Shown one piece after another: positions 4,467-26,056 of a stretch of 26,544 nucleotides of DNA. Numbering within the stretch: the first letter of the stretch is position 1; the number at the start of each line of letters is the position of its first letter. The stretch is from positions 1 through 26,544 of the IMG/VR virus record IMGVR_UViG_3300019742_000012; one strand, written 5' to 3'. The notes below the pieces were generated by a model. It saw only the letters and a program-made list of their open reading frames with translations. It was not told where the DNA came from and ran no database searches. The translations under genes were made by a program, and so were the position numbers. The stretch comes from a virus.

Positions 4467-7400
4467 TATGCACTCCTCTCATTTAGGTCTTGTATCTCTT
4501 TTCTCATTTTCTGTATCTCTTGTGCTTGTTGAATAGTGATATGGATAAGGTCATCAAACTTTTTTTCTAAAGCTGAATTATTTATACTTACAGGAATATC
4601 TCGACCATTTCGCATAGGGATAATCGCTTCAGGGTAACCTGCCTCTGCTACCATACCAAGGGTAGGACGAGATACTATACCTCCATCTGCAAAATATTTA
4701 ATTTGCCCCGTTTGAATTTGCCCCATTTTGGAGATACCATTACCAAAGTCTTGCTGCCAATTATCTACAGTAGGAGTAGGTACAGATACTGGTCGTACCC
4801 ATTTTGTTAGATTTAGAGGCTCTTGTGTAGCATTTTCTATCTCATCTTGTCTTTGTGTATCTAAGGTTAAGCTCTGCTCACTAGCATTTGTAATCTCTAA
4901 TAGAGCATTTTTGATATTTTCATTACTTGTTATCATACTATTATTAAAGCTCACTATTGCATTACCTAAAGAGACAAATGTAGCATCTTGACCTAATCCA
5001 CTTTCATCATCAAGAATTGTTATTTTGTCTAACTCTCTTGATATTCCCATAAGCTCCAAGATTGATGAGTTTATATCATTTGATGTGAGATTACCTGCAT
5101 CTGATAGAGTCTTGACATCTTCGAGTATAGTATTTAAATCACCTACTTTCTCATCTCTAGCTAATCCAAGCTCATCTCCTGCAATAATAACTTTCATCAC
5201 ATCTTCATTTTTTGTGAATATATCAAGGTACTTATTCATATCAGATACTATAGATGTATTTACATCGATAAGAGGATTAAAAGCTGAACTATCTTTTAGA
5301 TTGTTGGCAACTGTTTGTAAAGAGCTAAATGTATCTTGAAACTCTGTATAATCTATCCCTGTTTTAACCGTGCCATTTTCGTCAACGAAATTTGACATCT
5401 CACTTTTGAGAGAGTTATATCTTTGAGCATAGAACTTATATGACATCTCATCGGTTTTTGCTCCACCTGCCAATGAGTCTAAAAACTTTTGAGTTTCTTG
5501 TTTGAGAGAAGAGAAAGATGATAATATAGCATCTTGAGAGTCTCGTATTATCTTTGTCTTTTCATTTTCAAACTCTATTAAATTTTCAATCTGTGTGATA
5601 AAGTTAGCTTCATTCTCTTTTGAGAGTGCATCATATTTATCATTTATAGTTATCAATCGCTCTTCATTCGCATCTAAAAATGTTTTCATTCCATCATTTA
5701 GCACAATCAAAGAGCCATACAGTTCTTGACCAGATTTTGTTGTTAAGTCTTGAGCATTTAGTAGTTTCATATATGCTTTAGCAGTTTCTGGCAAAGAGAG
5801 ATTAAGAGATGTAAACTCTTCTGATAACTCTTTTCTTTGTAAAAAGAACTGCTCATCAGCACTTAGAAAGTTGGTTCTATAACTATCTAATGCACTTTGA
5901 AGTGTATCTATATCTCCAGCTCCATCAATCATAGATTGTGTAACATCAGCATAATCTTTTGATAGACTTCTAAGTAGAGATTGTGTGTCTTGTAGCTTGT
6001 CATATATACCTAAAAGCTCTTCTGCACTTCCCATAAAGCTAGATATAATATTACCTATACCACTATCCATAGTCTCATAAGCTACAAGACTATCTCTAAT
6101 TGTCTCTGCTGTTACATTTCCTGCTTTATTAGTAATATCTATAAAATCTACAACAGATATATCCATCTTATCAAGAACAAAAGAAGCCTGTTCATATCCA
6201 CTACTTACACGAGTTAAAGTTTCTAAGTATCCCTCACCAACATTTTGGAACTCTTTTACTTCAGGTAAAACATTCTGTGCTACATCAGATAGAGCATCAC
6301 CAAATGCACCAGATAGAAGTTCAGATATTTCTTTATTAGACATACCTTTGAAGTCCAATGAACCAATATCTATATTTGCATTAAGTAAAGCATCTTTTAG
6401 ATTGCCTTCTTCTTGCTTCATTATCCCCCAAAAACTATCAACTGCAACTTTACGACCTGTAGATAGTCCCAAAGCTGTTCCTGCTGTCAAAATCGTCTCA
6501 TACCCACTTGCAAGAGCATTCCCAAATTTTTCTTTGAGTTCTGTTGGTACTTCTGTAAAAGTTCTATCATAAGATACACTTTTTACAAGACCCCAAAAAT
6601 AGCTAGAAGATGTTTTTATATCTTTATATCCTTTAACAGCAAAGCTTTCCATACCATCTTTTAAGCTCTGTGAATAGGACTTCAAACCAGAACCTAAAAG
6701 CTCTGTTGTTTTTGAAGAAAAACCTGCAAATCCAAAATCTGCTGTAGGTTGAAAAGATCCACCTGCATAATCAAACCCTGTACTAGAGCTAATCCCTATA
6801 GCAATAGTACCAAAGATATTTTCCATATTTTGCAAAGAACTAACCATCTGGTAAGTAGCATCAAGTTGAGGATTCATAACATTATTTAGAGAGTTTGCTA
6901 AAGAGTTTGAGATAGATTGATATTCGCTTTTTCTTATACCTCTGTTTTTTTCATATTCATCTTTACCTGTAGTAGATGATAACATACCACCAAATAAATC
7001 TAGTGCATAGCCAACAGTAGATAAGATAGCATTATTAGAATCTTTAAGTCCATCTGCAAACTGTACTCCTAAATCCATAGAAGCCAAAGAGGCATTCAGA
7101 TTTATCCCATCTCTAAAATCATCCATAACACCATCAAAAGTATTACCAAATCCTTTTTCAAATGAACCTAAAAGCTCATCAAAAAAACCACCTTTTTTTA
7201 TATCAAGAGCATCACGGAGTACTTCTCCTAGTCCCTTAGACTTTACTTCCATCTTTGCCATTTCTGCATCATATATTTCTGAGAGTTGAGCTTGTGAAAG
7301 GTACTTCCCAAGTTCATTGAGTTTGTCTCCTAGCTTCATAGTAGAAGCCTCTTCTTCTCTACCTGTAAGCTCCAAGTATGTAATGTAAGCATCGTGAGAA

Positions 7401-19056: not shown

Positions 19057-19385
19057 TTCCAAAATCCTATTTTAGTTTTATTGGTAATATTTAGTATATA
19101 CTCATAAGGAGTCTCATCATCTCCTATACTAAGAGCTGTTGCTGTGTAGTCTCTAATATACTCTTTGGCTTCCATAGGTACTTCTACTAATATCACATGC
19201 TTAAACTTTAATATATTGATATTTTTATTTAAGCTCTCACTATCTCTCACATGAGCAAAATAGCTAGTATGTAATCCAAAAAGCTTTGCTAACTCACTTC
19301 CTACTATAAGTCCATCCATCATTGCAGATACTACATTCTCCATCCCTAATCCTTCTCTCTTAACATCTTCATATATTCTATCCAT
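19053..19385 (-). CDS. Small unknown protein, possible DNA-binding helix-turn-helix
   Basis: A 110-residue protein starting MDRIYEDVKREGLGMENVVS. ATG at 19385 is used because GAGAGG lies 7-8 bases upstream; a longer reading would need a TTG at 19400. Residues about 30-50 (IVGSELAKLFGLHTSYFAHV) look like a helix-turn-helix. The rest is mixed alpha-beta with no family I know. It overlaps both the replication protein gene upstream (by 8 bases) and the HNH-kinase gene downstream (ATGA), so it belongs to the replication-packaging operon. Confidence 0.5.
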   Translation of the reverse strand: MDRIYEDVKREGLGMENVVSAMMDGLIVGSELAKLFGLHTSYFAHVRDSESLNKNINILKFKHVILVEVPMEAKEYIRDYTATALSIGDDETPYEYILNITNKTKIGFWK

Positions 19386-20157
19386 TCTGCAACCTCTCAA
19401 ATGCTGTTTTAATCTGTATAGACATCTTGTTATAGTTGTTGCGAAGTGAGTTCATATCTAATACTAATGATTTATAAAAAGAGCCATCCCATACATCGTA
19501 GTCATTATCATTTGTAAATATAAATTTAATCATGTTAGTTATCTCTACTATGCTCCTATCATCTTCTACTCTCATCTTGTAGCAGATACTAGACCATTTA
19601 TTCCAATTTGGCTCTTTAAACTTAGGTAACTCTTTTTTAATATATTCATATAACACTTTACTAATAGCCAAATCCTCATCTTCAAAAAGGTACTTTTTAG
19701 TATTGTTATTTGTTTTATCTTTTAGTCCAATTGATGTTTTTTTGTTGTAAACCTTTGGTCTCTTATTAGTCGCTTCTTTGGGCTTTATATCCTCTTCTTT
19801 TGTCTCATTGATGTCTGATTGTTGTCCAATTGATTTTTCAACACTTTTATTTACTGTTGATTTCACACTACCCTCAAATAACTCCCAAGACGCTTCAAAG
19901 TTCGCTATGACTCCATTGAACTCTTCTATCCAATTCCCTGCTGTAGTCCTTGACAGTCCTATAGTCTCTTTGCCTCTACTCTTATACGAGTTATGCCAAC
20001 ACTTAGCATAATAAGCATTAGCTTGTAGATTATCACTCCTATAATCGTCCCAGTAGTCAAGGAACGCAATAGCCATATCTCTCCTACCTACTCTCTTTAG
20101 CTCCTGCACAAAATAGATAGGATATGTATCATAAAGTCCATTTTTAGTTATATTCAT
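19378..20157 (-). CDS. Phage replication protein, helicase-loader/replisome-organiser-like
   Basis: A 259-residue protein of two domains. Residues 10-90 form an N-terminal helical domain (YPIYFVQELKRVGRRDMAIA, then FLDYWDD, ending GLSRTTAGNWIEEF, which looks like a DNA-binding helix-turn-helix). A polar Lys/Asn/Thr linker covers about 95-150. The C-terminal part (about 155-255) has W-NKWSS-x-x-x-KMR-x-x-DDRS-x-x-EI-x-x-MI-x-FIF-x-x-D, then W-x-x-x-FYKSL and LRNNYNKM, a pattern common to DnaD-like phage replication initiators and helicase loaders. It follows the helicase gene with an ATGA overlap, so it probably loads that helicase at the phage origin. The N-terminal domain has a UGA-broken paralogue at 22849-23061. 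Confidence 0.65.
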   Translation of the reverse strand: MNITKNGLYDTYPIYFVQELKRVGRRDMAIAFLDYWDDYRSDNLQANAYYAKCWHNSYKSRGKETIGLSRTTAGNWIEEFNGVIANFEASWELFEGSVKSTVNKSVEKSIGQQSDINETKEEDIKPKEATNKRPKVYNKKTSIGLKDKTNNNTKKYLFEDEDLAISKVLYEYIKKELPKFKEPNWNKWSSICYKMRVEDDRSIVEITNMIKFIFTNDNDYDVWDGSFYKSLVLDMNSLRNNYNKMSIQIKTAFERLQNG

Positions 20158-21419
20158 ATTCTAGGCATCTCCACTTTTGTATTAGCTTCTTCATAAAATA
20201 TTTCAAACGCAGGACTCTTTGGCACGATTTGTCTCTGAAACTTACTACCTATCCCTACTTTCAAATAAGTACCACCACCCCAATTATCTTTCGTGAGCTT
20301 GATATTTCTCATCTCTTGATTACTTTCTAGCCTATTGCCTTTTATATCTCGGATAAAGTCCATCTCATACGCTATTCTCATAGATGTCCGAATAGTAGTA
20401 GCCCCTCTAAACACTCCTGCACTCTTGCCATCACCTTTAGTATGATGATGCAAAAAGATGATACTCTTGCCCTCTTCAGCAGACCATCGTTTAAATGGCT
20501 TCATAAATGTAGAAGCCTCAGAGTTGTCATTCTCATCAGCTCCCATAAAATCACTCAATGGGTCAAGTACAATCAATCCAAAATCTTTGAGTTGTTTCTT
20601 CATCTTATAAAAGATAGGACTTACCTCTGATGTCTTAAAGCTTTTTTTGACTACAAGTGATGGAGGTTCTTTGGTTGTGAAATATATACAGTGTACTATC
20701 TTGCTATAGTCTTTAGAGTATCCCAAAAACTCTACAACTTGTTTTAGCCTATAATCTATAACTCCCTCAGGGTCTTCACTAAGCCACAAAAAAGCCTTCT
20801 TTTGATATTTGTGTTCAACAACATACCTAATAGCCAATTGTAACGCTATCCAAGTCTTACCCACACCACCATCAGCAGAGATAAGAGTTAATCCAAATAG
20901 AGGTATAGGAAGCCACTCTTTACAAGAAAATAAAGGCTTCTCTTTGCTTAATTGAGTACCATCTTTCAAATCAAGCTCAAAGGAGTCACCCTCTATATCC
21001 TCCAAACTCTCTTGTATAGTAGCCAAAATATCATCAGGAGTCTTATCAAGTGCATTAGTAGCGTTTTGGATATTTGCACCAAGCATCTGTAGTTTTCGTT
21101 TGTTAGATAGTTCTAGTAGTTGGCTTATGTAAGGAGCTGTATTAGTAATAGGATTAGCAGACATAACAGTAAGTAAGTCTTCTGTATCAAACTTACCATG
21201 TTTCTTCATCTCAATCTCTATAAAGTCATCATCAAAAGGTTTCTCTTCTCTCTCAAGAGTGAGAAAAGCTTCAAATAATTGTCTATGAAAAGGATAAAAG
21301 AAAACTTCACTCTCAATTTTAAGTGAAATATCTCCAAAAGCTTTAGGGTCAAATATTATAGAAGATAGTAATGCTCTCTCAACATTTAAATTAAATAGTG
21401 TACTATGTTGATTACTCAT
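20154..21419 (-). CDS. Replicative helicase: DnaB N-terminal domain with RepA-type ATPase
   Basis: A 421-residue protein. ATG at 21419 has GAGGAG 6-7 bases upstream; a GTG at 21422 is an alternative. Residues about 10-110 are a DnaB N-terminal domain (VERALLSSIIFDPKAFGDIS, FYPFHRQLFEAFL, and the NTAPYISQLLELS helix). After a linker, residues about 170-400 form a RecA-like ATPase of the RepA/AAA_25 type: Walker A SADGGVGKT, then LWLSEDP, Walker B LIVLDPLSDFMGADEND, FLHHHTKG, and FRGATTIRTSMR with likely arginine finger. It should unwind DNA as a hexameric ring in phage replication. This replaces the usual DnaB C-terminal motor with a RepA-like one. The first residues repeat those of the upstream small gene. 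Confidence 0.85.
   Translation of the reverse strand: MSNQHSTLFNLNVERALLSSIIFDPKAFGDISLKIESEVFFYPFHRQLFEAFLTLEREEKPFDDDFIEIEMKKHGKFDTEDLLTVMSANPITNTAPYISQLLELSNKRKLQMLGANIQNATNALDKTPDDILATIQESLEDIEGDSFELDLKDGTQLSKEKPLFSCKEWLPIPLFGLTLISADGGVGKTWIALQLAIRYVVEHKYQKKAFLWLSEDPEGVIDYRLKQVVEFLGYSKDYSKIVHCIYFTTKEPPSLVVKKSFKTSEVSPIFYKMKKQLKDFGLIVLDPLSDFMGADENDNSEASTFMKPFKRWSAEEGKSIIFLHHHTKGDGKSAGVFRGATTIRTSMRIAYEMDFIRDIKGNRLESNQEMRNIKLTKDNWGGGTYLKVGIGSKFQRQIVPKSPAFEIFYEEANTKVEMPRI
21385..21416. repeat. Direct repeat copy 1 (start of helicase gene)
   Basis: This 32-base stretch matches 21698-21729 with one mismatch (g at 21410 against c at 21723). It encodes most of SNQHSTLFNL at the helicase N-terminus, in the same frame as the second copy in the upstream gene. 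Confidence 0.85.
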
Positions 21420-21735
21420 CACTAACTCCTCTATCTATCCAATACTCTTTATGATTTGATTCATCTACTAATCGTCTCTCAACCTTGATTTGATATTTAT
21501 TAACTAAGTCTGATATACGAGTCTTGATATTGTGTATAGCTCTTCCCTCAGCGTCTGTTGGCTTATTATTATAGTCATCTATCACATCTCCACGCCAGAG
21601 AGCATAAAGTACATGATAATTATGTGAAGAGTTTAACATTCTACGATTGTGTATAGATTTCAAATCTTTGATAGCTTCATCAAAGCTACAATCAAACTTT
21701 AAATTAAATAGTGTACTATGTTCATTACTTATCAT
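21412..21735 (-). CDS. Small winged-helix protein (HTH_39-like)
   Basis: A 107-residue protein. ATG at 21735 is preferred to a TTG at 21771 that lacks a usable ribosome site. Its N-terminus MISNEHSTLFNLKF nearly repeats that of the helicase encoded next (MSNQHSTLFNLNVE). The remainder has HVLYALWRGDVIDD, then a helix and TRISDLVNKYQIKVERRLVD, which resembles the phage helix-turn-helix family with 'L-x-x-L-x-x-G ... RI-x-DL-x-x-x-x-x-I-x-x-x' used in small replication or regulatory proteins. It overlaps the CII-like gene by 11 bases and the helicase gene by 8. A role at the origin beside the helicase is inferred from the shared N-terminal peptide and gene order. Confidence 0.6.
   Translation of the reverse strand: MISNEHSTLFNLKFDCSFDEAIKDLKSIHNRRMLNSSHNYHVLYALWRGDVIDDYNNKPTDAEGRAIHNIKTRISDLVNKYQIKVERRLVDESNHKEYWIDRGVSDE
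21698..21729. repeat. Direct repeat copy 2 (start of winged-helix gene)
   Basis: Partner of 21385-21416; 31 of 32 bases are the same. It encodes SNEHSTLFNL near the N-terminus of the small winged-helix protein. Confidence 0.85.
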
Positions 21736-22222
21736 CTTGTTCACCAAGCTTGACTTCTGCCATATCGACAATCTCTTGATACTTAACAGAGGCTTCTCTA
21801 CTCTCTTTTATAATGTCTCTTAGCTCATCACTTGTTAATACTTTATCCTTCAAAGCTCTCTTTGTCACTTTGAAAGCCTCATCACCCTCTATCATCGCAT
21901 TATCAATGGCTTCGTGAAAGCTGACTGCAGTAATAGTAACAGGACAAATAGATACAGGACGCAATCCAAAAGCTCTCATTCTCTCAGTGAAATATTCTTT
22001 TACTGCTATATCATCAAGAGCATGAAGGAGTATCTCTTCTTTTGCGTGATTAAGCATTTTGGATTCATTGTTTGGATTGAGAGCATTGGAAAACTGTATA
22101 GAAGCATTATCACCTCTATAGCCTAGTAAATCAGCTAAATATCTACGACAAGTATTTTGACGCATATTAAAGCCATCTACAGCCTTGATAAAGGCATTAT
22201 AAATAGTAACTGGTTTGTTCAT
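21725..22222 (-). CDS. CII-like phage regulatory protein (CP76 type)
   Basis: A 165-residue protein, first gene of the leftward replication-to-lysis array. The N-terminal part (FIKAVDGFNMRQNTCRRYLA, then LLGYRGDNASIQFSNALNPN) resembles the Phage_CP76 / P2-186 CII-like regulators, which place a helix-turn-helix before an 'L-x-x-x-LNP' segment. The C-terminal half is helical and charged and may mediate oligomer formation. Such proteins set the lysis-lysogeny choice. The ribosome site AAAGGAG is part of a 13-base inverted repeat with an upstream copy, so translation is probably controlled by RNA structure. It ends inside the next gene (11-base overlap). Confidence 0.6.
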   Translation of the reverse strand: MNKPVTIYNAFIKAVDGFNMRQNTCRRYLADLLGYRGDNASIQFSNALNPNNESKMLNHAKEEILLHALDDIAVKEYFTERMRAFGLRPVSICPVTITAVSFHEAIDNAMIEGDEAFKVTKRALKDKVLTSDELRDIIKESREASVKYQEIVDMAEVKLGEQDDK

Positions 22223-22443: not shown

Positions 22444-22635
22444 ATGAGCATATTAGACAATACCAAGCTAGATATAACCTGTCCAGAGTGTAATAAAAAT
22501 CAATCACTAACCATAAAAACATTAAAGAGCAATAGATACAAATGTACCAGTTGCAAAGCAATATTTAATGCCAAAGCTTTTAATAGTGAAATCTCCAAAA
22601 TAGAGTCTCAACTTAAAAAGATGGGTTTTAGATAA
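22444..22635 (+). CDS. Small zinc-ribbon protein
   Basis: A 63-residue protein with a clear four-cysteine zinc ribbon: CPEC (Cys13, Cys16) and YKCTSC (Cys34, Cys37), followed by a short helical tail (EISKIESQLKKMGF). It has a good ribosome site (AAAGGAAC) and a perfect-stem terminator right at its stop codon, which supports a real rightward gene even though its 3' half overlaps a leftward ORF. Zinc ribbons of this size often bind nucleic acid or RNA polymerase; here the function is unknown. Transcription from the leftward promoter at 22783-22812 would run antisense across it. Confidence 0.7.
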   Translation: MSILDNTKLDITCPECNKNQSLTIKTLKSNRYKCTSCKAIFNAKAFNSEISKIESQLKKMGFR

Positions 22636-22740
22636 ATTTTCTAAAACTTTTTGATTACCAGACTTTTTGGCTTTTTTAAATCGTCTATAAATAGGCATAT
22701 TTTGTCTCTTAGCTAAAATATAGATGATATTTTGAGTCAT
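22522..22740 (-). CDS. Small basic ORF behind a consensus promoter, antisense to the zinc-ribbon gene
   Basis: A possible 72-residue protein starting MTQNIIYILAKRQNMPIYRR, strongly basic in its first 40 residues. It has AAGGAA 4-6 bases before the ATG and lies about 36 bases after the expected start of a transcript from a near-perfect sigma70 promoter, the position of a first early gene (where lambda has cro). Against it: the last 38 codons lie opposite the zinc-ribbon gene and look like antisense sequence, and no family is recognised. It may be a short real protein, a truncated one, or just leader RNA. Confidence 0.35.
   Translation of the reverse strand: MTQNIIYILAKRQNMPIYRRFKKAKKSGNQKVLENLSKTHLFKLRLYFGDFTIKSFGIKYCFATGTFVSIAL
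22625..22652 (+). terminator. Intrinsic terminator of the zinc-ribbon gene
   Basis: GTTTTAGA (22625-22632) pairs perfectly with TCTAAAAC (22640-22647) around TAAATTT and is followed by TTTTT (22648-22652). The stop codon TAA (22633-22635) is in the loop. The T run is only on the plus-strand side, so it works rightward. Confidence 0.75.
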
Positions 22741-22782
22741 AAAGTTCCTTCTGTTACAAAATGTTATAAAAACTTGAAGAGC

Positions 22783-22812
22783 ATTATAGACAAAGTTGTA
22801 TATAAATGTCAA
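22783..22812 (-). promoter_or_regulatory. Early leftward promoter (consensus sigma70)
   Basis: On the minus strand TTGACA (22812-22807), an 18-base spacer, and TATAAT (22788-22783); both boxes are perfect. The start should be near 22776. The surrounding sequence, TACTTGACATT...TACAA...TATAATGC, is shared with the rightward promoter at 25668-25696. TACAAAATGTTA at 22755-22766 resembles the operator-like TACAAAAATGTA at 25679-25690, so both are probably controlled by the repressor at 25219-25632. Confidence 0.8.
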
Positions 22813-22848
22813 GTATTTTATTGAAAAATTAATTTTAAAGGAAAAAAT

Positions 22849-23061
22849 ATGTTAGTTGGAATATACCCATCTAGTTATGTAAAAGAATTAAAAGCTAAAG
22901 GAGAAAGAGATAAAGCAGTAGCTTTTATGGATTATTGGGATGATTGCCAAACAAATAATCATAACTACCTAGAATATCAAAAACACTGAAACTGTGATAA
23001 TATTCAACTATGGATAGAAGAGTTTGACACTTATATAAAAATATTAAATAAAAAGGACTAA
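22849..23061 (+). pseudogene. UGA-interrupted paralogue of the replication protein N-terminal domain
   Basis: Reading from ATG 22849 gives 46 residues (MLVGIYPSSYVKELKAKGER, then DKAVAFMDYWDDCQTNNHNY, LEYQKH), a TGA at 22987-22989, then 23 more in-frame codons (NCDNIQLWIEEFDTYIKILN) to a TAA at 23059. The whole matches residues 12-84 of the replication protein at 19378-20157: YVKELKAKGERDKAVAFMDYWDD against FVQELKRVGRRDMAIAFLDYWDD, and WIEEF in both. TGA stands where the paralogue and family have Trp, so one G-to-A change explains it. TGA is a normal stop elsewhere here. The product is a 46-residue fragment unless read through. The nuclease gene starts 2 bases after the TAA, and its ribosome site AAGGA lies in the last codons here. 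Confidence 0.75.
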
Positions 23062-23063
23062 AG

Positions 23064-24404
23064 ATGGAAATACTAATACTACTCATCCCTATACTTACCC
23101 TCATACTAGGCTACTTACTTATAAAGAGTAAAACAAAATACAAAAAACTAGAAAAAGAGTCTGAAGAGTTCAAACTAAAATATGAACCTATACTAGATAT
23201 TGAAGTAGAGGTAGAGAAGAAGAAAGAAAGTTTATCTAAAATAAAAAAAGATATTAGAGAAATCAAAAAGTCTTATTCAGAGAAGAGAGCTATCTATGAT
23301 GATTTAACAAAACAACTCTCTCTCTATGAAGAAGACTTAGCTCTTACAGAATTAGGCTTTTATAAACCTCGCTTTGCACTAGATGACTCCGAAAAGTACA
23401 AACGCGAAATTACCAAAAATAGAGATAAACAAAAAGTTTTGATGTCAAACAAAACAGCAATTACAGCCAGTCAAGAATGGACAGTAGATGGCAGTAAAAC
23501 CAAAGGTAAAGCGATGATTAATAAAACAATCAAGCTTGTAGCTAGAGCCTTTAATAATGAGTGTGATGTAATTATCTCAAAAGTCAAATGGAGTAATTTA
23601 GACTCGTCTGAAAACCGTATGAGAAAAATGTATGATACTATCAATAAGCTTGTAGAAAATCAAAATGTTAGTATTAACTACGACTACCTCAGTTTAAAAA
23701 TAGATGAGCTTATCCTTACCCATGAATACAGAGAAAAACAACAAGATGAAAAAGAAGAACAAGCCCAAATACGCCAACAAATGCGTGAAGAAGCCCAACT
23801 CATCCAAGAAATAGAAAAAGCCGAAAAAGAAGAAGATAAATATGCCAAGCTACTCGCCAAAGCCAAACTTGATGCAGAAAAAGCCACTGGAGAGAAACTA
23901 TCAATACTACAATCACAAATAGCACAACTCCAAATAGACCTAATAGAAGCCCACAAGAAAAATGAAAGAGCCAAATCTATGGCACAACAAACAAGAGCAG
24001 GACATGTATATATCATCTCAAATATTGGCTCTTTTGGTGAGAATATATACAAGATAGGAATGACAAGACGATTAGAACCACTAGACAGGGTCAAAGAGCT
24101 AGGAGATGCTTCTGTACCCTTTCTATTTGATGTTCATGCAATGATTTATAGTGAAGATGCTCCAGGTATGGAAAAAAACTTGCATAATATTTTTAACCAA
24201 AATAGAGTAAATTTGGTAAATAATAGAAAAGAATTTTTCAATGTCTCTTTACAGCAAATCAAAGAAGAGGTACTCAAACACAAAGGAGATGTAGAATTTA
24301 TAGAGACCATAGAAGCAAGAGAATACACAGAATCACTCTCTATTAGAGCGTCACTCAATCAAGAACAACCACAAGTATTACATACACCACCCTCTAGTAT
24401 CTAA
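23064..24404 (+). CDS. Membrane-anchored DUF4041 + GIY-YIG (T5orf172/MUG113) nuclease, SNIPE-like
   Basis: A 446-residue protein. Residues 3-20 form a single N-terminal membrane anchor. A coiled coil follows (about 22-95), then a globular region (about 95-225; ELGFYKPRFALDDSEKYK..., SQEWTVDGSKTKGKAM, NNECDVIISKVKWSNLDSSE) matching DUF4041, then a second, Gln/Glu-rich coiled coil (about 222-305). The C-terminal domain (313-405) is of the T5orf172/MUG113 branch of GIY-YIG nucleases: GHVYIISN, YKIGMTRR, DRVKELGDASVPF, the likely metal-binding Glu370 in APGMEKNLHNIF, and NNRKEFF. This architecture is that of SNIPE, a membrane nuclease reported to cut phage DNA as it enters. In a prophage it would act as superinfection exclusion. 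It faces the repressor operon and ends at a shared hairpin. Confidence 0.82.
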   Translation: MEILILLIPILTLILGYLLIKSKTKYKKLEKESEEFKLKYEPILDIEVEVEKKKESLSKIKKDIREIKKSYSEKRAIYDDLTKQLSLYEEDLALTELGFYKPRFALDDSEKYKREITKNRDKQKVLMSNKTAITASQEWTVDGSKTKGKAMINKTIKLVARAFNNECDVIISKVKWSNLDSSENRMRKMYDTINKLVENQNVSINYDYLSLKIDELILTHEYREKQQDEKEEQAQIRQQMREEAQLIQEIEKAEKEEDKYAKLLAKAKLDAEKATGEKLSILQSQIAQLQIDLIEAHKKNERAKSMAQQTRAGHVYIISNIGSFGENIYKIGMTRRLEPLDRVKELGDASVPFLFDVHAMIYSEDAPGMEKNLHNIFNQNRVNLVNNRKEFFNVSLQQIKEEVLKHKGDVEFIETIEAREYTESLSIRASLNQEQPQVLHTPPSSI

Positions 24405-24422
24405 TACGACTCAAGAGCCATA

Positions 24423-24779
24423 TCAAGCCGAAACGATATTTTCAGTTTGGCTTTTGTCGCAGTTGAAAGTTATCTTTTTACAATTTCGCTTATCTTTGAT
24501 GATGGTCTCATATTCTCTATGCTTTCCAATCCACACAAAGATAGCTTTTTTGGGTTTGCACAAAATCAAAACCAATAGCCTAATTTGAGTATTGGGAATA
24601 GACAAAGAGACAATCGTATCATGTTTGTTGCATTGTATCTTATGAGGTCGTATCTTGTGGTGCAAAGGTTCTTTTTTATAAATACACCTCAAATGCCTAT
24701 ACTGAGCAGAAGAGAGTATCCCCTTAGCAATCAAAGCATCAAGCTTCTTCAAGAAAATGATAGTTGCTTTCACTTCCAA
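24423..24779 (-). CDS. RelE/HigB-like toxin candidate
   Basis: A 118-residue basic protein. The probable start is TTG at 24779, 7 bases after AGGGGAG; a GTG at 24773 is an alternative. The N-terminal helix pair (FLKKLDALIAKGILSSAQYR) is followed by beta strands with IRLLVLILCKPKKAIFVWIG and KHREYETI, which resembles the last strand and 'IG-H-x-x-xY' end of RelE/ParE-superfamily toxins. These cut mRNA at the ribosome. The gene overlaps the 155-residue gene upstream by 41 bases, so the two are translationally linked. It is in the repressor operon, expected to be on in the lysogen. The match is to a motif, not the whole family; catalytic residues cannot be named with certainty. Confidence 0.5.
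   Translation of the reverse strand: MEVKATIIFLKKLDALIAKGILSSAQYRHLRCIYKKEPLHHKIRPHKIQCNKHDTIVSLSIPNTQIRLLVLILCKPKKAIFVWIGKHREYETIIKDKRNCKKITFNCDKSQTENIVSA
24425..24455. terminator. Bidirectional hairpin between convergent nuclease and RelE-like genes
   Basis: AAGCCGAAAC (24425-24434) pairs with GTTTGGCTT (24445-24453) with one bulged G, followed on the plus strand by TTTTG. It is inside the last codons of the RelE-like gene (minus) and 20 bases after the nuclease stop (plus), so it could end both transcripts. Confidence 0.5.
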
Positions 24780-25206
24780 TACAAGACTCCCCTATCTTCA
24801 AAGATATATCAAACGATATATTCACAAGCTCCACATACAGCTCTTCCAACGCAATATGAAGCCTATCCCCTATCACAGGAGACAATTTAGTAAACGCCTC
24901 TTCATCCAAGAGACATTCCACCTTATCCTTACTCTCTTCCAAATCATCATAAAATATATTCAATACCTTGCTATCTACTTCTATATCATTGATATAATAC
25001 AAAGCAATCATATCTCTAAAAGATTTAAGCTCCGAAGTTGCCCTATCAATAGGTTGCAATAGTTTAAAAGTCTTTGTCTGAATACTCTCAAGTAACAATT
25101 CTTTTTTATATGCACTAAAAGCATTTTTCATACTCTTGCTTAAAGAGCTAAACAATTCTTCTATTACATTACCTTGTGTTTCATAACTAAAATTACTATA
25201 AGTCAT
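24739..25206 (-). CDS. Unknown protein in the repressor operon, possible antitoxin or exclusion factor
   Basis: A 155-residue acidic, helix-rich protein that I do not recognise (MTYSNFSYETQGNVIEELFS...; later SKDKVECLLDEEAF and LHIALEELYVELVNISFDIS). It has no membrane segment and no known DNA-binding motif. It has a good ribosome site (AAAGGAA) and starts 12 bases after the repressor stop; its end overlaps the RelE-like gene by 41 bases. Tight linkage to a toxin-like gene and low charge complementarity (acidic against basic) make it a candidate antitoxin, though it is larger than most. Lambda rexA/rexB-like exclusion function is an alternative by position. Confidence 0.6.
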   Translation of the reverse strand: MTYSNFSYETQGNVIEELFSSLSKSMKNAFSAYKKELLLESIQTKTFKLLQPIDRATSELKSFRDMIALYYINDIEVDSKVLNIFYDDLEESKDKVECLLDEEAFTKLSPVIGDRLHIALEELYVELVNISFDISLKIGESCIGSESNYHFLEEA

Positions 25207-25218
25207 ATTTTTTCCTTT

Positions 25219-25632
25219 CTATTCATTTTCAATATCCAAAACACAACGCAAAACCTTTCTGCGTTTGGCTTTGTCCATCTCTTCCATCATCTCCACCACA
25301 TTCAATATATCAGCAGGTAAACACTCAGTGATGACCTTGTTGGCTTTAGTAGTACAAGAGCCTATACTATTACCATTTCCTACTATCTGATTATTTTTTT
25401 TACCGTTTTGAGACAAAATAGGTTTCTCTTCTCCATTTTCTATATATGAAATTTCGTCAATAGTAAAAATTTTTAAAAGTCCATCTTTCATAAAGAAAGG
25501 CATATTCTTAGCACCATTTCCTTTTTCATAACGACTAATCCGAGTAACATCTTTTTTTAACACAATAGCTAAATCCTGTTGAGTTTTTTTATTATTCAGT
25601 CTTACTTCTTTTAATCTATCAAACCATTCCAT
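25219..25632 (-). CDS. Phage repressor, XRE-family helix-turn-helix
   Basis: A 137-residue repressor. Residues 4-60 are an HTH_3/Cro-CI domain (RLKEVRLNNKKTQQDLAIVL, then DVTRISRYEKG, with the recognition helix near 27-37). A Gly/Asn-rich linker (KKNNQIVGNGNSIGS) is followed by a short helical C-terminus (ILNVVEMMEEMDKAKRRKVL) likely for dimer formation. There is no LexA/CI-type Ser-Lys peptidase domain, so induction should not go through RecA-driven self-cleavage. It is divergent from the rightward promoter at 25668-25696 and upstream of two co-oriented accessory genes. It likely binds the TACATTATGTA-type sites in the gap to its right. A distal half-copy of the dispersed palindrome (TTTCGTCAA) occurs at 25452-25460. 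Confidence 0.85.
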   Translation of the reverse strand: MEWFDRLKEVRLNNKKTQQDLAIVLKKDVTRISRYEKGNGAKNMPFFMKDGLLKIFTIDEISYIENGEEKPILSQNGKKNNQIVGNGNSIGSCTTKANKVITECLPADILNVVEMMEEMDKAKRRKVLRCVLDIENE

Positions 25633-25655
25633 TTATTATAAAAATCTCCAAAATA

Positions 25656-25696
25656 TACATTATGTACTTGACATTATGTACAAAAATGTATATAAT
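25656..25696 (+). promoter_or_regulatory. Early rightward promoter with repressor operators
   Basis: TTGACA (25668-25673), a 17-base spacer and TATAAT (25691-25696), both perfect; the start should be near 25703. Overlapping it are operator-like sites: TACATTATGTA (25656-25666, a perfect 5+1+5 palindrome), GACATTATGTA (25670-25680) and TACAAAAATGTA (25679-25690). A repressor bound here would block this promoter and could regulate its own leftward transcription. Confidence 0.85.
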
Positions 25697-25810: not shown

Positions 25811-26056
25811 ATGATTATAGAGACAAATCAGGTGATTAATAGATACAAAATATCTGCAAAGACTCTTTTTAATAAAAGAAAGATTATCGAGGAAGCAGGT
25901 GGTATCATCAAAGGTGATGGTGGCTCTAGCAAAAACCTCTACAAAACAAGTGTCTTAGATAGACTCGCTAGAGAGAAAAAACTAGGAAGCCAACCATATA
26001 AAGTTATCTTGAATAAAGATAAAGAGAAAGCTGATTTTTTCGCCGACGAAAATTAA
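25811..26056 (+). CDS. Early phage regulator, small HTH protein
   Basis: An 81-residue basic protein, first full gene of the rightward early operon. MIIETNQVINRYKISAKTLF followed by NKRKIIEEAGGIIKGDGGSS resembles the winged or MerR/excisionase-type helix-turn-helix seen in small phage regulators: a short helix, 'IS-x-x-TL-x-x-RK', a loop with Gly and Lys, and KNLYKTSVLDRLARE as the recognition or wing-support helix. AAAAGG lies 6-7 bases before the ATG. Its last codons (FFADEN) are encoded by a diverged copy of the dispersed palindrome (26037-26052), which may have extended the C-terminus. By position it could be Cro-like or an early activator. Confidence 0.6.
   Translation: MIIETNQVINRYKISAKTLFNKRKIIEEAGGIIKGDGGSSKNLYKTSVLDRLAREKKLGSQPYKVILNKDKEKADFFADEN
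26037..26052. repeat. Dispersed palindrome copy 6 (diverged), at the end of an early gene
   Basis: TTTTCGCCGACGAAAA; arms TTTTCG/CGAAAA kept, centre CCGA. Read on the plus strand as the last residues FADEN before the stop. Confidence 0.6.

What the first reader, a model, noticed from the sequence alone, without database searches (positions are those of the whole stretch)
22783..25696. Lambda-like immunity region packed with likely lysogenic defence genes
Two outward-facing, consensus and sequence-related early promoters (22783-22812 leftward, 25668-25696 rightward) bracket a 2.9 kb block. Inside are the repressor, a 155-residue unknown and a RelE-like protein on one strand, and a membrane-anchored DUF4041/GIY-YIG nuclease on the other. 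In lambda the same space between pL and pR holds cI, rexA and rexB. Seen directly: promoters, gene order, domains. Inferred: that these genes are on in the lysogen and block other phages.
Basis: partly seen in the sequence, partly recalled or inferred. Interest (0 to 1): 0.8.

Follow-up and report, generated by a model that had tools for sequence, protein, structure and literature searches.

The report
Prophage immunity block carrying defence genes
Between two matching early promoters this prophage keeps its repressor together with a membrane nuclease of the recently described SNIPE anti-phage family and a probable toxin-antitoxin pair, and related phages fill the same slot with other nucleases, toxins or a methyltransferase, so the slot looks like a standard place for genes that protect the infected cell.

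Summary
The two outward-facing promoters are the only perfect TTGACA/TATAAT sites in the window (about 0.08 expected), and they share an operator-like sequence over the -10. The nuclease (23064-24404 +) belongs to the SNIPE / PD-Lambda-1 defence family (PADLOC E=9e-172; catalytic Glu, DUF4041, GIY-YIG and N-terminal membrane helix present). [quoted passage not shown] coli (Nature 2026). The 155-residue and RelE-like genes form a conserved overlapping two-gene unit found in eight further loci; the second has a predicted RelE/YafQ fold and the first is all-helical, so a probable toxin-antitoxin pair with an undescribed antitoxin family. Related phages, including mitomycin-released Sulfurimonas phage SNW-1, have the same bracket around their repressor but different cargo: SNase plus HipA-like kinase/DUF3037, BRCT plus the same pair, PBECR2/DUF2283, a type II methyltransferase, and an HSDR_N nuclease (one promoter only). 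In all eight loci the first cargo gene starts 15-44 nt beyond the left promoter's -35. This is an immunity-region cargo slot, comparable to lambda rexAB and Salmonella bstA but independently organised. Expression in the lysogen and protection are inferred, not shown.

The parts
22783..22812 (-). leftward early promoter (12/12 sigma-70 consensus, 18-nt spacer), reading into the CII/helicase/replication operon
22784..22805 (.). left operator-like imperfect palindrome TTATATACAACTTTGTCTATAA (9 of 11 symmetric positions) over spacer and -10
   Evidence: binding not tested
22849..22989 (+). 46-aa ORF with SD, 36 nt beyond the left -35; remnant of a paralogue of the N-terminus of the replication protein 19378-20157 (similarity continues past a TGA to about 23061); probable leader of the nuclease transcript
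23064..24404 (+). SNIPE / PD-Lambda-1 family membrane nuclease, 446 aa: TM about 2-21, DUF4041 157-212, GIY-YIG 313-403, catalytic E370
24423..24779 (-). RelE/YafQ/HigB-fold probable toxin, 118 aa, TTG start, overlaps the upstream gene by 41 nt
24739..25206 (-). 155-aa all-helical protein, probable antitoxin of a family without a Pfam model
25219..25632 (-). HTH_3 repressor, 137 aa, no S24 domain; 39% identical to the HTH regulator of phage SNW-1; 12 nt upstream of the 155-aa gene
25668..25696 (+). rightward early promoter (12/12, 17-nt spacer)
25674..25695 (.). right operator-like sequence TTATGTACAAAAATGTATATAA
   Evidence: binding not tested
25811..26056 (+). first gene of the rightward operon, 81 aa, weak excisionase-type match
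21725..22222 (-). CII-like regulator, first conserved gene of the leftward operon (flank of the slot)
20154..21422 (-). DnaB/AAA_25 replicative helicase of the leftward operon (flank of the slot)

Best explanation
This is the immunity block of a temperate tailed phage, very probably of Campylobacterota, used as a cargo slot for genes that act in the lysogen. The repressor probably holds both outward early promoters off by binding similar operators over their -10 boxes (inferred). The repressor gene continues after 12 nt into an overlapping two-gene unit, a helical probable antitoxin followed by a RelE-fold probable toxin, so this pair would be made whenever the repressor is made (inferred from anatomy). 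On the other strand a rightward transcript, starting in or beside the left operator, would make a SNIPE-family nuclease. [quoted passage not shown] The resident prophage is spared because its DNA is not injected.
For: Twin 12/12 promoters with related operators, far above chance. SNIPE assignment: PADLOC PD-Lambda-1 9.4e-172, DUF4041 2.7e-21, T5orf172 3.4e-15; E370 aligns with E414 of the 500-aa PD-lambda-1 of phage PhiR26_1, and E414A abolishes SNIPE defence; hydropathy 2.6 at residues 2-20. SNIPE cuts during injection and spares an induced prophage (PMC13190303). The two-gene unit keeps order and overlap in L209, L210 and L236-L241; in L239-L241 it also lies downstream of the repressor on the same strand. 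Toxin fold matches RelE, YafQ and HigB. Six related complete blocks and one half block have the same bracket with different cargo. In 8 of 8 the first + strand cargo gene starts 15-44 nt beyond the left -35. SNIPE genes elsewhere also lie beside repressor-type genes.
Against: No expression, binding, toxicity or infection data. The nuclease promoter is not identified; no good consensus site precedes it. Much cargo in relatives has no known function. PADLOC scores the SNW-1 HipA-like/DUF3037 genes only moderately (E about 3e-8), and those models are candidate systems.
Confidence: 0.7

Rival explanations
1. The cargo genes are ordinary morons inserted by chance near the repressor, each with its own regulation; the slot has no special role in lysogeny.
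For: SNIPE genes also lie in tail and late regions of other phages (ES18 gp19, PhiR26_1); the two-gene unit also occurs in a morphogenesis region (L236) and beside host genes (L209).
Against: The same bracket with different cargo recurs in seven complete blocks and one half block, from phages whose helicases, where compared, are only about 32-38% identical, always with the first cargo gene 15-44 nt beyond the left -35.
Confidence: 0.17
2. The nuclease and the RelE-like pair act on the phage's own cycle (early takeover of the host, maintenance of the prophage by addiction) rather than against other phages.
For: RelE-type pairs are often maintenance modules (general knowledge); relatives L237 and L238 carry ParA/ParB-like genes and may be plasmid-like phages, where addiction would help.
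Against: The nuclease is a full-length relative of an experimentally shown defence protein that does not affect an induced prophage. Cargo in relatives includes a type II methyltransferase and an HSDR_N nuclease.
Confidence: 0.25
3. The 155-residue and RelE-like genes are not a toxin-antitoxin pair; the RelE-fold protein is an mRNA-processing or regulatory factor and the helical protein its partner.
For: No family model reaches its cut-off, the helical partner has no DNA-binding domain or PDB match, and toxicity is untested.
Against: Fold matches are led by RelE, YafQ and HigB toxins. Invariant RPHK and WxGKH-EYE residues suit an RNase. Gene order, overlap and mobility are typical of such pairs.
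Confidence: 0.2

Closest known systems
SNIPE (PD-Lambda-1), Saxton et al. Nature 2026 (PMC13190303); Vassallo et al. 2022 (PMC9519451)
   Same: N-terminal membrane helix, DUF4041, GIY-YIG nuclease, catalytic Glu; 51% overall identity to the 500-aa PD-lambda-1 of phage PhiR26_1
   Different: shorter (446 against 500 aa) with a different N-terminal region; in a Campylobacterota-type phage; inside the immunity block rather than in a nin-region or late-region moron position
phage lambda immunity region (pL-rexB-rexA-cI-pR)
   Same: repressor and exclusion-type genes between two outward early promoters with related operator sequences
   Different: nuclease on the opposite strand to the repressor; repressor without S24; no Cro recognised; cargo unrelated to RexAB; the replication and structural operon lies leftward
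bstA of Salmonella prophage BTP1 (PMC8585504)
   Same: a defence gene in the immunity region behind the repressor; that paper cites the lambdoid repressor-N interval as a mosaic hotspot
   Different: different protein and mechanism; no aba-like self-immunity element was sought here
RelBE / HigBA / DinJ-YafQ type II toxin-antitoxin systems
   Same: RelE-fold toxin and an overlapping two-gene operon
   Different: the partner is all-helical with no recognised DNA-binding domain; sequence outside known families
Sulfurimonas phage SNW-1 (OP810509, PMC11290706)
   Same: same CII/helicase/replication operon, homologous 138-aa repressor, same twin-promoter bracket
   Different: cargo is BRCT, SNase, HipA-like kinase with DUF3037, and others; no SNIPE and no RelE-like pair found

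Membership tests
SNIPE (PD-Lambda-1) | DUF4041 domain followed by a C-terminal GIY-YIG (T5orf172/MUG113) nuclease domain | tested here: met
   DUF4041 2.7e-21, T5orf172 3.4e-15, PADLOC PD-Lambda-1 9.4e-172 over residues 24-435
SNIPE (PD-Lambda-1) | catalytic glutamate equivalent to E414 | tested here: met
   E370 aligns with E414 of the 500-aa PhiR26_1 protein; invariant in eight homologues
SNIPE (PD-Lambda-1) | membrane targeting by the N-terminal region (one TM in 59% of homologues) | tested here: met
   mean Kyte-Doolittle 2.6 over residues 2-20, then a Lys-rich stretch; localisation itself not tested
SNIPE (PD-Lambda-1) | cleaves phage DNA at injection; contacts tape measure protein | not testable with these tools
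   needs infection assays; literature only (PMC13190303)
lambda-type immunity region | two outward early promoters bracketing the repressor | tested here: met
lambda-type immunity region | same repressor binds operators at both promoters | tested here: inconclusive
   related operator-like sequences; no binding data
lambda-type immunity region | exclusion genes co-directional with and behind the repressor gene | tested here: inconclusive
   met for the 155-aa/RelE-like pair (12-nt gap), not met for the nuclease (opposite strand)
lambda-type immunity region | Cro as first gene of an early operon | tested here: not met
   no Cro-type HTH among the first genes either side
lambda-type immunity region | repressor with S24/LexA-like autocleavage domain | tested here: not met
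   HTH only; relative L238 does have S24
RelE-superfamily type II toxin-antitoxin | toxin with RelE fold | tested here: met
   pLDDT 80.5; RelE 1wmi, YafQ 4q2u, HigB 5ycl; target TM 0.69-0.73; best E 1.9e-3
RelE-superfamily type II toxin-antitoxin | conserved bicistronic pair | tested here: met
   nine loci with the window, partner first, overlap about 40 nt
RelE-superfamily type II toxin-antitoxin | antitoxin with a DNA-binding domain of a known antitoxin family | tested here: not met
   helical, no known family
RelE-superfamily type II toxin-antitoxin | toxicity and neutralisation | not testable with these tools
   bench test needed

The most novel reading that the evidence does not exclude
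Temperate phages of Campylobacterota share a dedicated two-sided cargo slot in the immunity block. A rightward cargo gene is fired from a promoter overlapping the left operator, and a second cargo set is co-transcribed behind the repressor. Defence and toxin genes are exchanged in this slot and their expression is tied by the repressor to the lysogenic state. The 155-aa protein founds a new antitoxin family for a new RelE-fold toxin family.
Probability: 0.4. Interest if true: 0.65.

Novelty: new variant of a known kind. Interest (0 to 1): 0.55.

Why it matters
It gives a rule for finding prophage-encoded defence genes in an under-studied bacterial phylum: look between two perfect outward promoters around the repressor. 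It places SNIPE, a defence that acts at DNA entry, in a position expected to be on in the lysogen and harmless to the resident phage. It also offers an undescribed RelE-fold pair and many unknown cargo genes as defence candidates, testable with a cultured host because SNW-1 is released by mitomycin C.

Tried and rejected
Single-protein scans of viral contigs with the repressor, helicase and 155-aa protein, and of genome contigs with the helicase, found nothing; alignments were needed. tblastn of the 155-aa and RelE-like proteins in phage and plasmid collections found nothing. Helicase relatives L199 and L202-L205 showed no twin bracket and appear to be other element types; L206 lacks the bracket as well. 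L207, an interrupted relative, has no 12/12 promoter. L248 is another phage type and was set aside. L243 has a related helicase but no twin promoters. A profile search of the RelE-like family against PDB sequences gave only chance hits. An alternative genetic code for the TGA at 22987-22989 was considered and rejected: one stop in a decayed copy. Operator palindromes alone are not significant against shuffled sequence in most cases; the case rests on the conserved TGTNTATAAT half-site in 15 of 15 promoters and on the promoter pairs.
Full report
What is there. The window is a 26.5-kb IMG/VR virus record. Most predicted genes run leftward: a CII-like regulator, helicase, replication protein, HNH protein, terminase, portal, capsid, a 1500-aa probable tape measure protein and a lysis region (the structural names beyond the terminase are my reading of the translations). 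At 22812-22783 (-) and 25668-25696 (+) stand the only two perfect sigma-70 promoters of the window, against about 0.08 expected from a dinucleotide model. They face outward. Between them lie the repressor, a 155-aa protein and a RelE-like protein on the minus strand, and a nuclease on the plus strand.

The nuclease. PADLOC assigns it to PD-Lambda-1 at 9.4e-172, and Pfam finds DUF4041 and T5orf172. PD-lambda-1 is now called SNIPE. It is an E. coli inner-membrane nuclease that cuts phage DNA during injection, associates with tape measure protein, and does not affect an induced prophage (PMC13190303). The window protein has the hydrophobic N-terminal helix, and E370 aligns with E414 of the 500-aa PD-lambda-1 protein of phage PhiR26_1. 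E414 is the residue whose change to Ala abolishes SNIPE defence. Overall identity to the PhiR26_1 protein is 51%. SNIPE genes in other phages sit either as separate insertions (ES18 gp19, PhiR26_1) or in the lysogeny module behind the repressor (Corynebacterium phage Poushou, Streptococcus phages phi5218 and Javan523). Among 95 neighbours of SNIPE genes, taken from 52 dereplicated viral contigs with some neighbours left out, 13 match HTH_3, 7 Peptidase_S24 and 7 Peptidase_M78.

The 155-aa and RelE-like genes. Relatives were found in Campylobacterota genomes L209 and L210 and in six viral contigs L236-L241. In all of them the 155-aa homologue comes first and overlaps the RelE-like gene by about 40 nt. 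AlphaFold2 on the seven-sequence alignment gives the RelE-like protein a RelE fold (pLDDT 80.5). Foldseek ranks Pyrococcus RelE, E. coli YafQ and HigB first (target TM 0.69-0.73 for the clean matches; E about 0.002-0.01). The partner is modelled as all-helical, without a convincing PDB match. I infer a toxin-antitoxin pair with an undescribed antitoxin family. In the window the pair starts 12 nt after the repressor stop codon. In L239, L240 and L241 it also lies downstream of the repressor, one gene removed, on the same strand.

The slot. Phages with the same CII/helicase/replication operon or the same repressor type were examined. Complete blocks with two outward promoters were found in SNW-1 (record 31850 - and 1 +), L237, L238, L242 (right promoter 11/12), L251 and L252; L201 shows only the left half before the contig ends. 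In the five loci other than the window with two 12/12 sites, those sites are the only ones in 12-17 kb, with 0-0.03 expected. All 15 promoters contain TGTNTATAAT, consistent with an operator half-site fused to the -10. In all eight loci the first plus-strand cargo gene starts 15-44 nt beyond the left -35, nearly always with a clear Shine-Dalgarno. Its transcript must therefore start in or beside the left operator, unless it comes from further upstream. Cargo differs: SNIPE and the RelE-like pair (window); BRCT protein, SNase, DUF3037 and HipA-like kinase (SNW-1; PADLOC candidate PDC-M66); BRCT protein and the RelE-like pair (L237, L238); DUF2283 with a PBECR2-type nuclease, weak matches (L242); type II methyltransferase and a 221-274-aa neighbour (L252); HSDR_N-type nuclease (L201); unknowns (L251). 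SNW-1 is a real phage released by mitomycin C (PMC11290706), and its repressor is 39% identical to the window's over 135 residues.

Mechanism. Shown: the anatomy, the families and the recurrence of the slot. Inferred: repressor binding at both operators, expression in the lysogen, and protection. The most likely working is as follows. The repressor silences both early promoters. Its own transcript carries the RelE-like pair. A weak promoter back-to-back with the left early promoter makes the nuclease, which waits at the membrane and cuts the DNA of incoming siphophages. The resident genome is not injected and is spared, as shown for SNIPE in E. coli.

Comparison. The lambdoid repressor-N interval is a recognised mosaic hotspot holding rexAB or bstA (PMC8585504). 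The block works like that region but is not the same system. The repressor lacks an S24 domain, Cro was not found, and the nuclease is on the opposite strand. I therefore call it a new variant of a known kind. SNIPE itself is a new member of a published family; the RelE-like pair is the least known component.

Limits. The host is inferred from relatives (SNW-1 in Sulfurimonas; Campylobacterota genomes). The repressor-operator link and the nuclease promoter are unproven. Only seven complete blocks were seen, and cargo functions are mostly by family match.

Noticed in passing
22849-23061 (+): A 46-aa ORF followed by a TGA and further in-frame similarity is a shortened paralogue of the N-terminus of the replication protein at 19378-20157 (38% over 77 columns, E=2e-12 in a pairwise comparison).
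   Followed up: yes
25655-25685: ACATTATGTAC occurs twice in direct repeat at the right promoter, suggesting a second operator copy upstream of the -35.
   Followed up: no
25219-25632; L237:6398-6904; L242:7560-8120; L245:9037-9654: Repressors and small membrane proteins of these blocks share an Asn/Gly-rich motif like NNQIVGNGN / GNNNNQAGRD; its role is unknown.
   Followed up: no
L237:10371-11754, L238:10133-11558: ParA- and ParB-like genes in the rightward operons suggest that these relatives may be plasmid-like phages.
   Followed up: no
22444-22635 (+) and 22522-22743 (-): A zinc-ribbon ORF and a 73-aa ORF with a good SD overlap tail to tail just left of the left promoter; either or both may be real.
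   Followed up: partly
L252 (reverse strand), between 12/12 promoters at 5684 (-) and 8768 (+): A type II methyltransferase with a preceding 221-274-aa ORF, likely a restriction-modification system, in the same immunity slot.
   Followed up: partly
L236:5556-6348: The same helical/RelE-like pair sits in a morphogenesis region next to an antirepressor-like gene in an unrelated phage.
   Followed up: no
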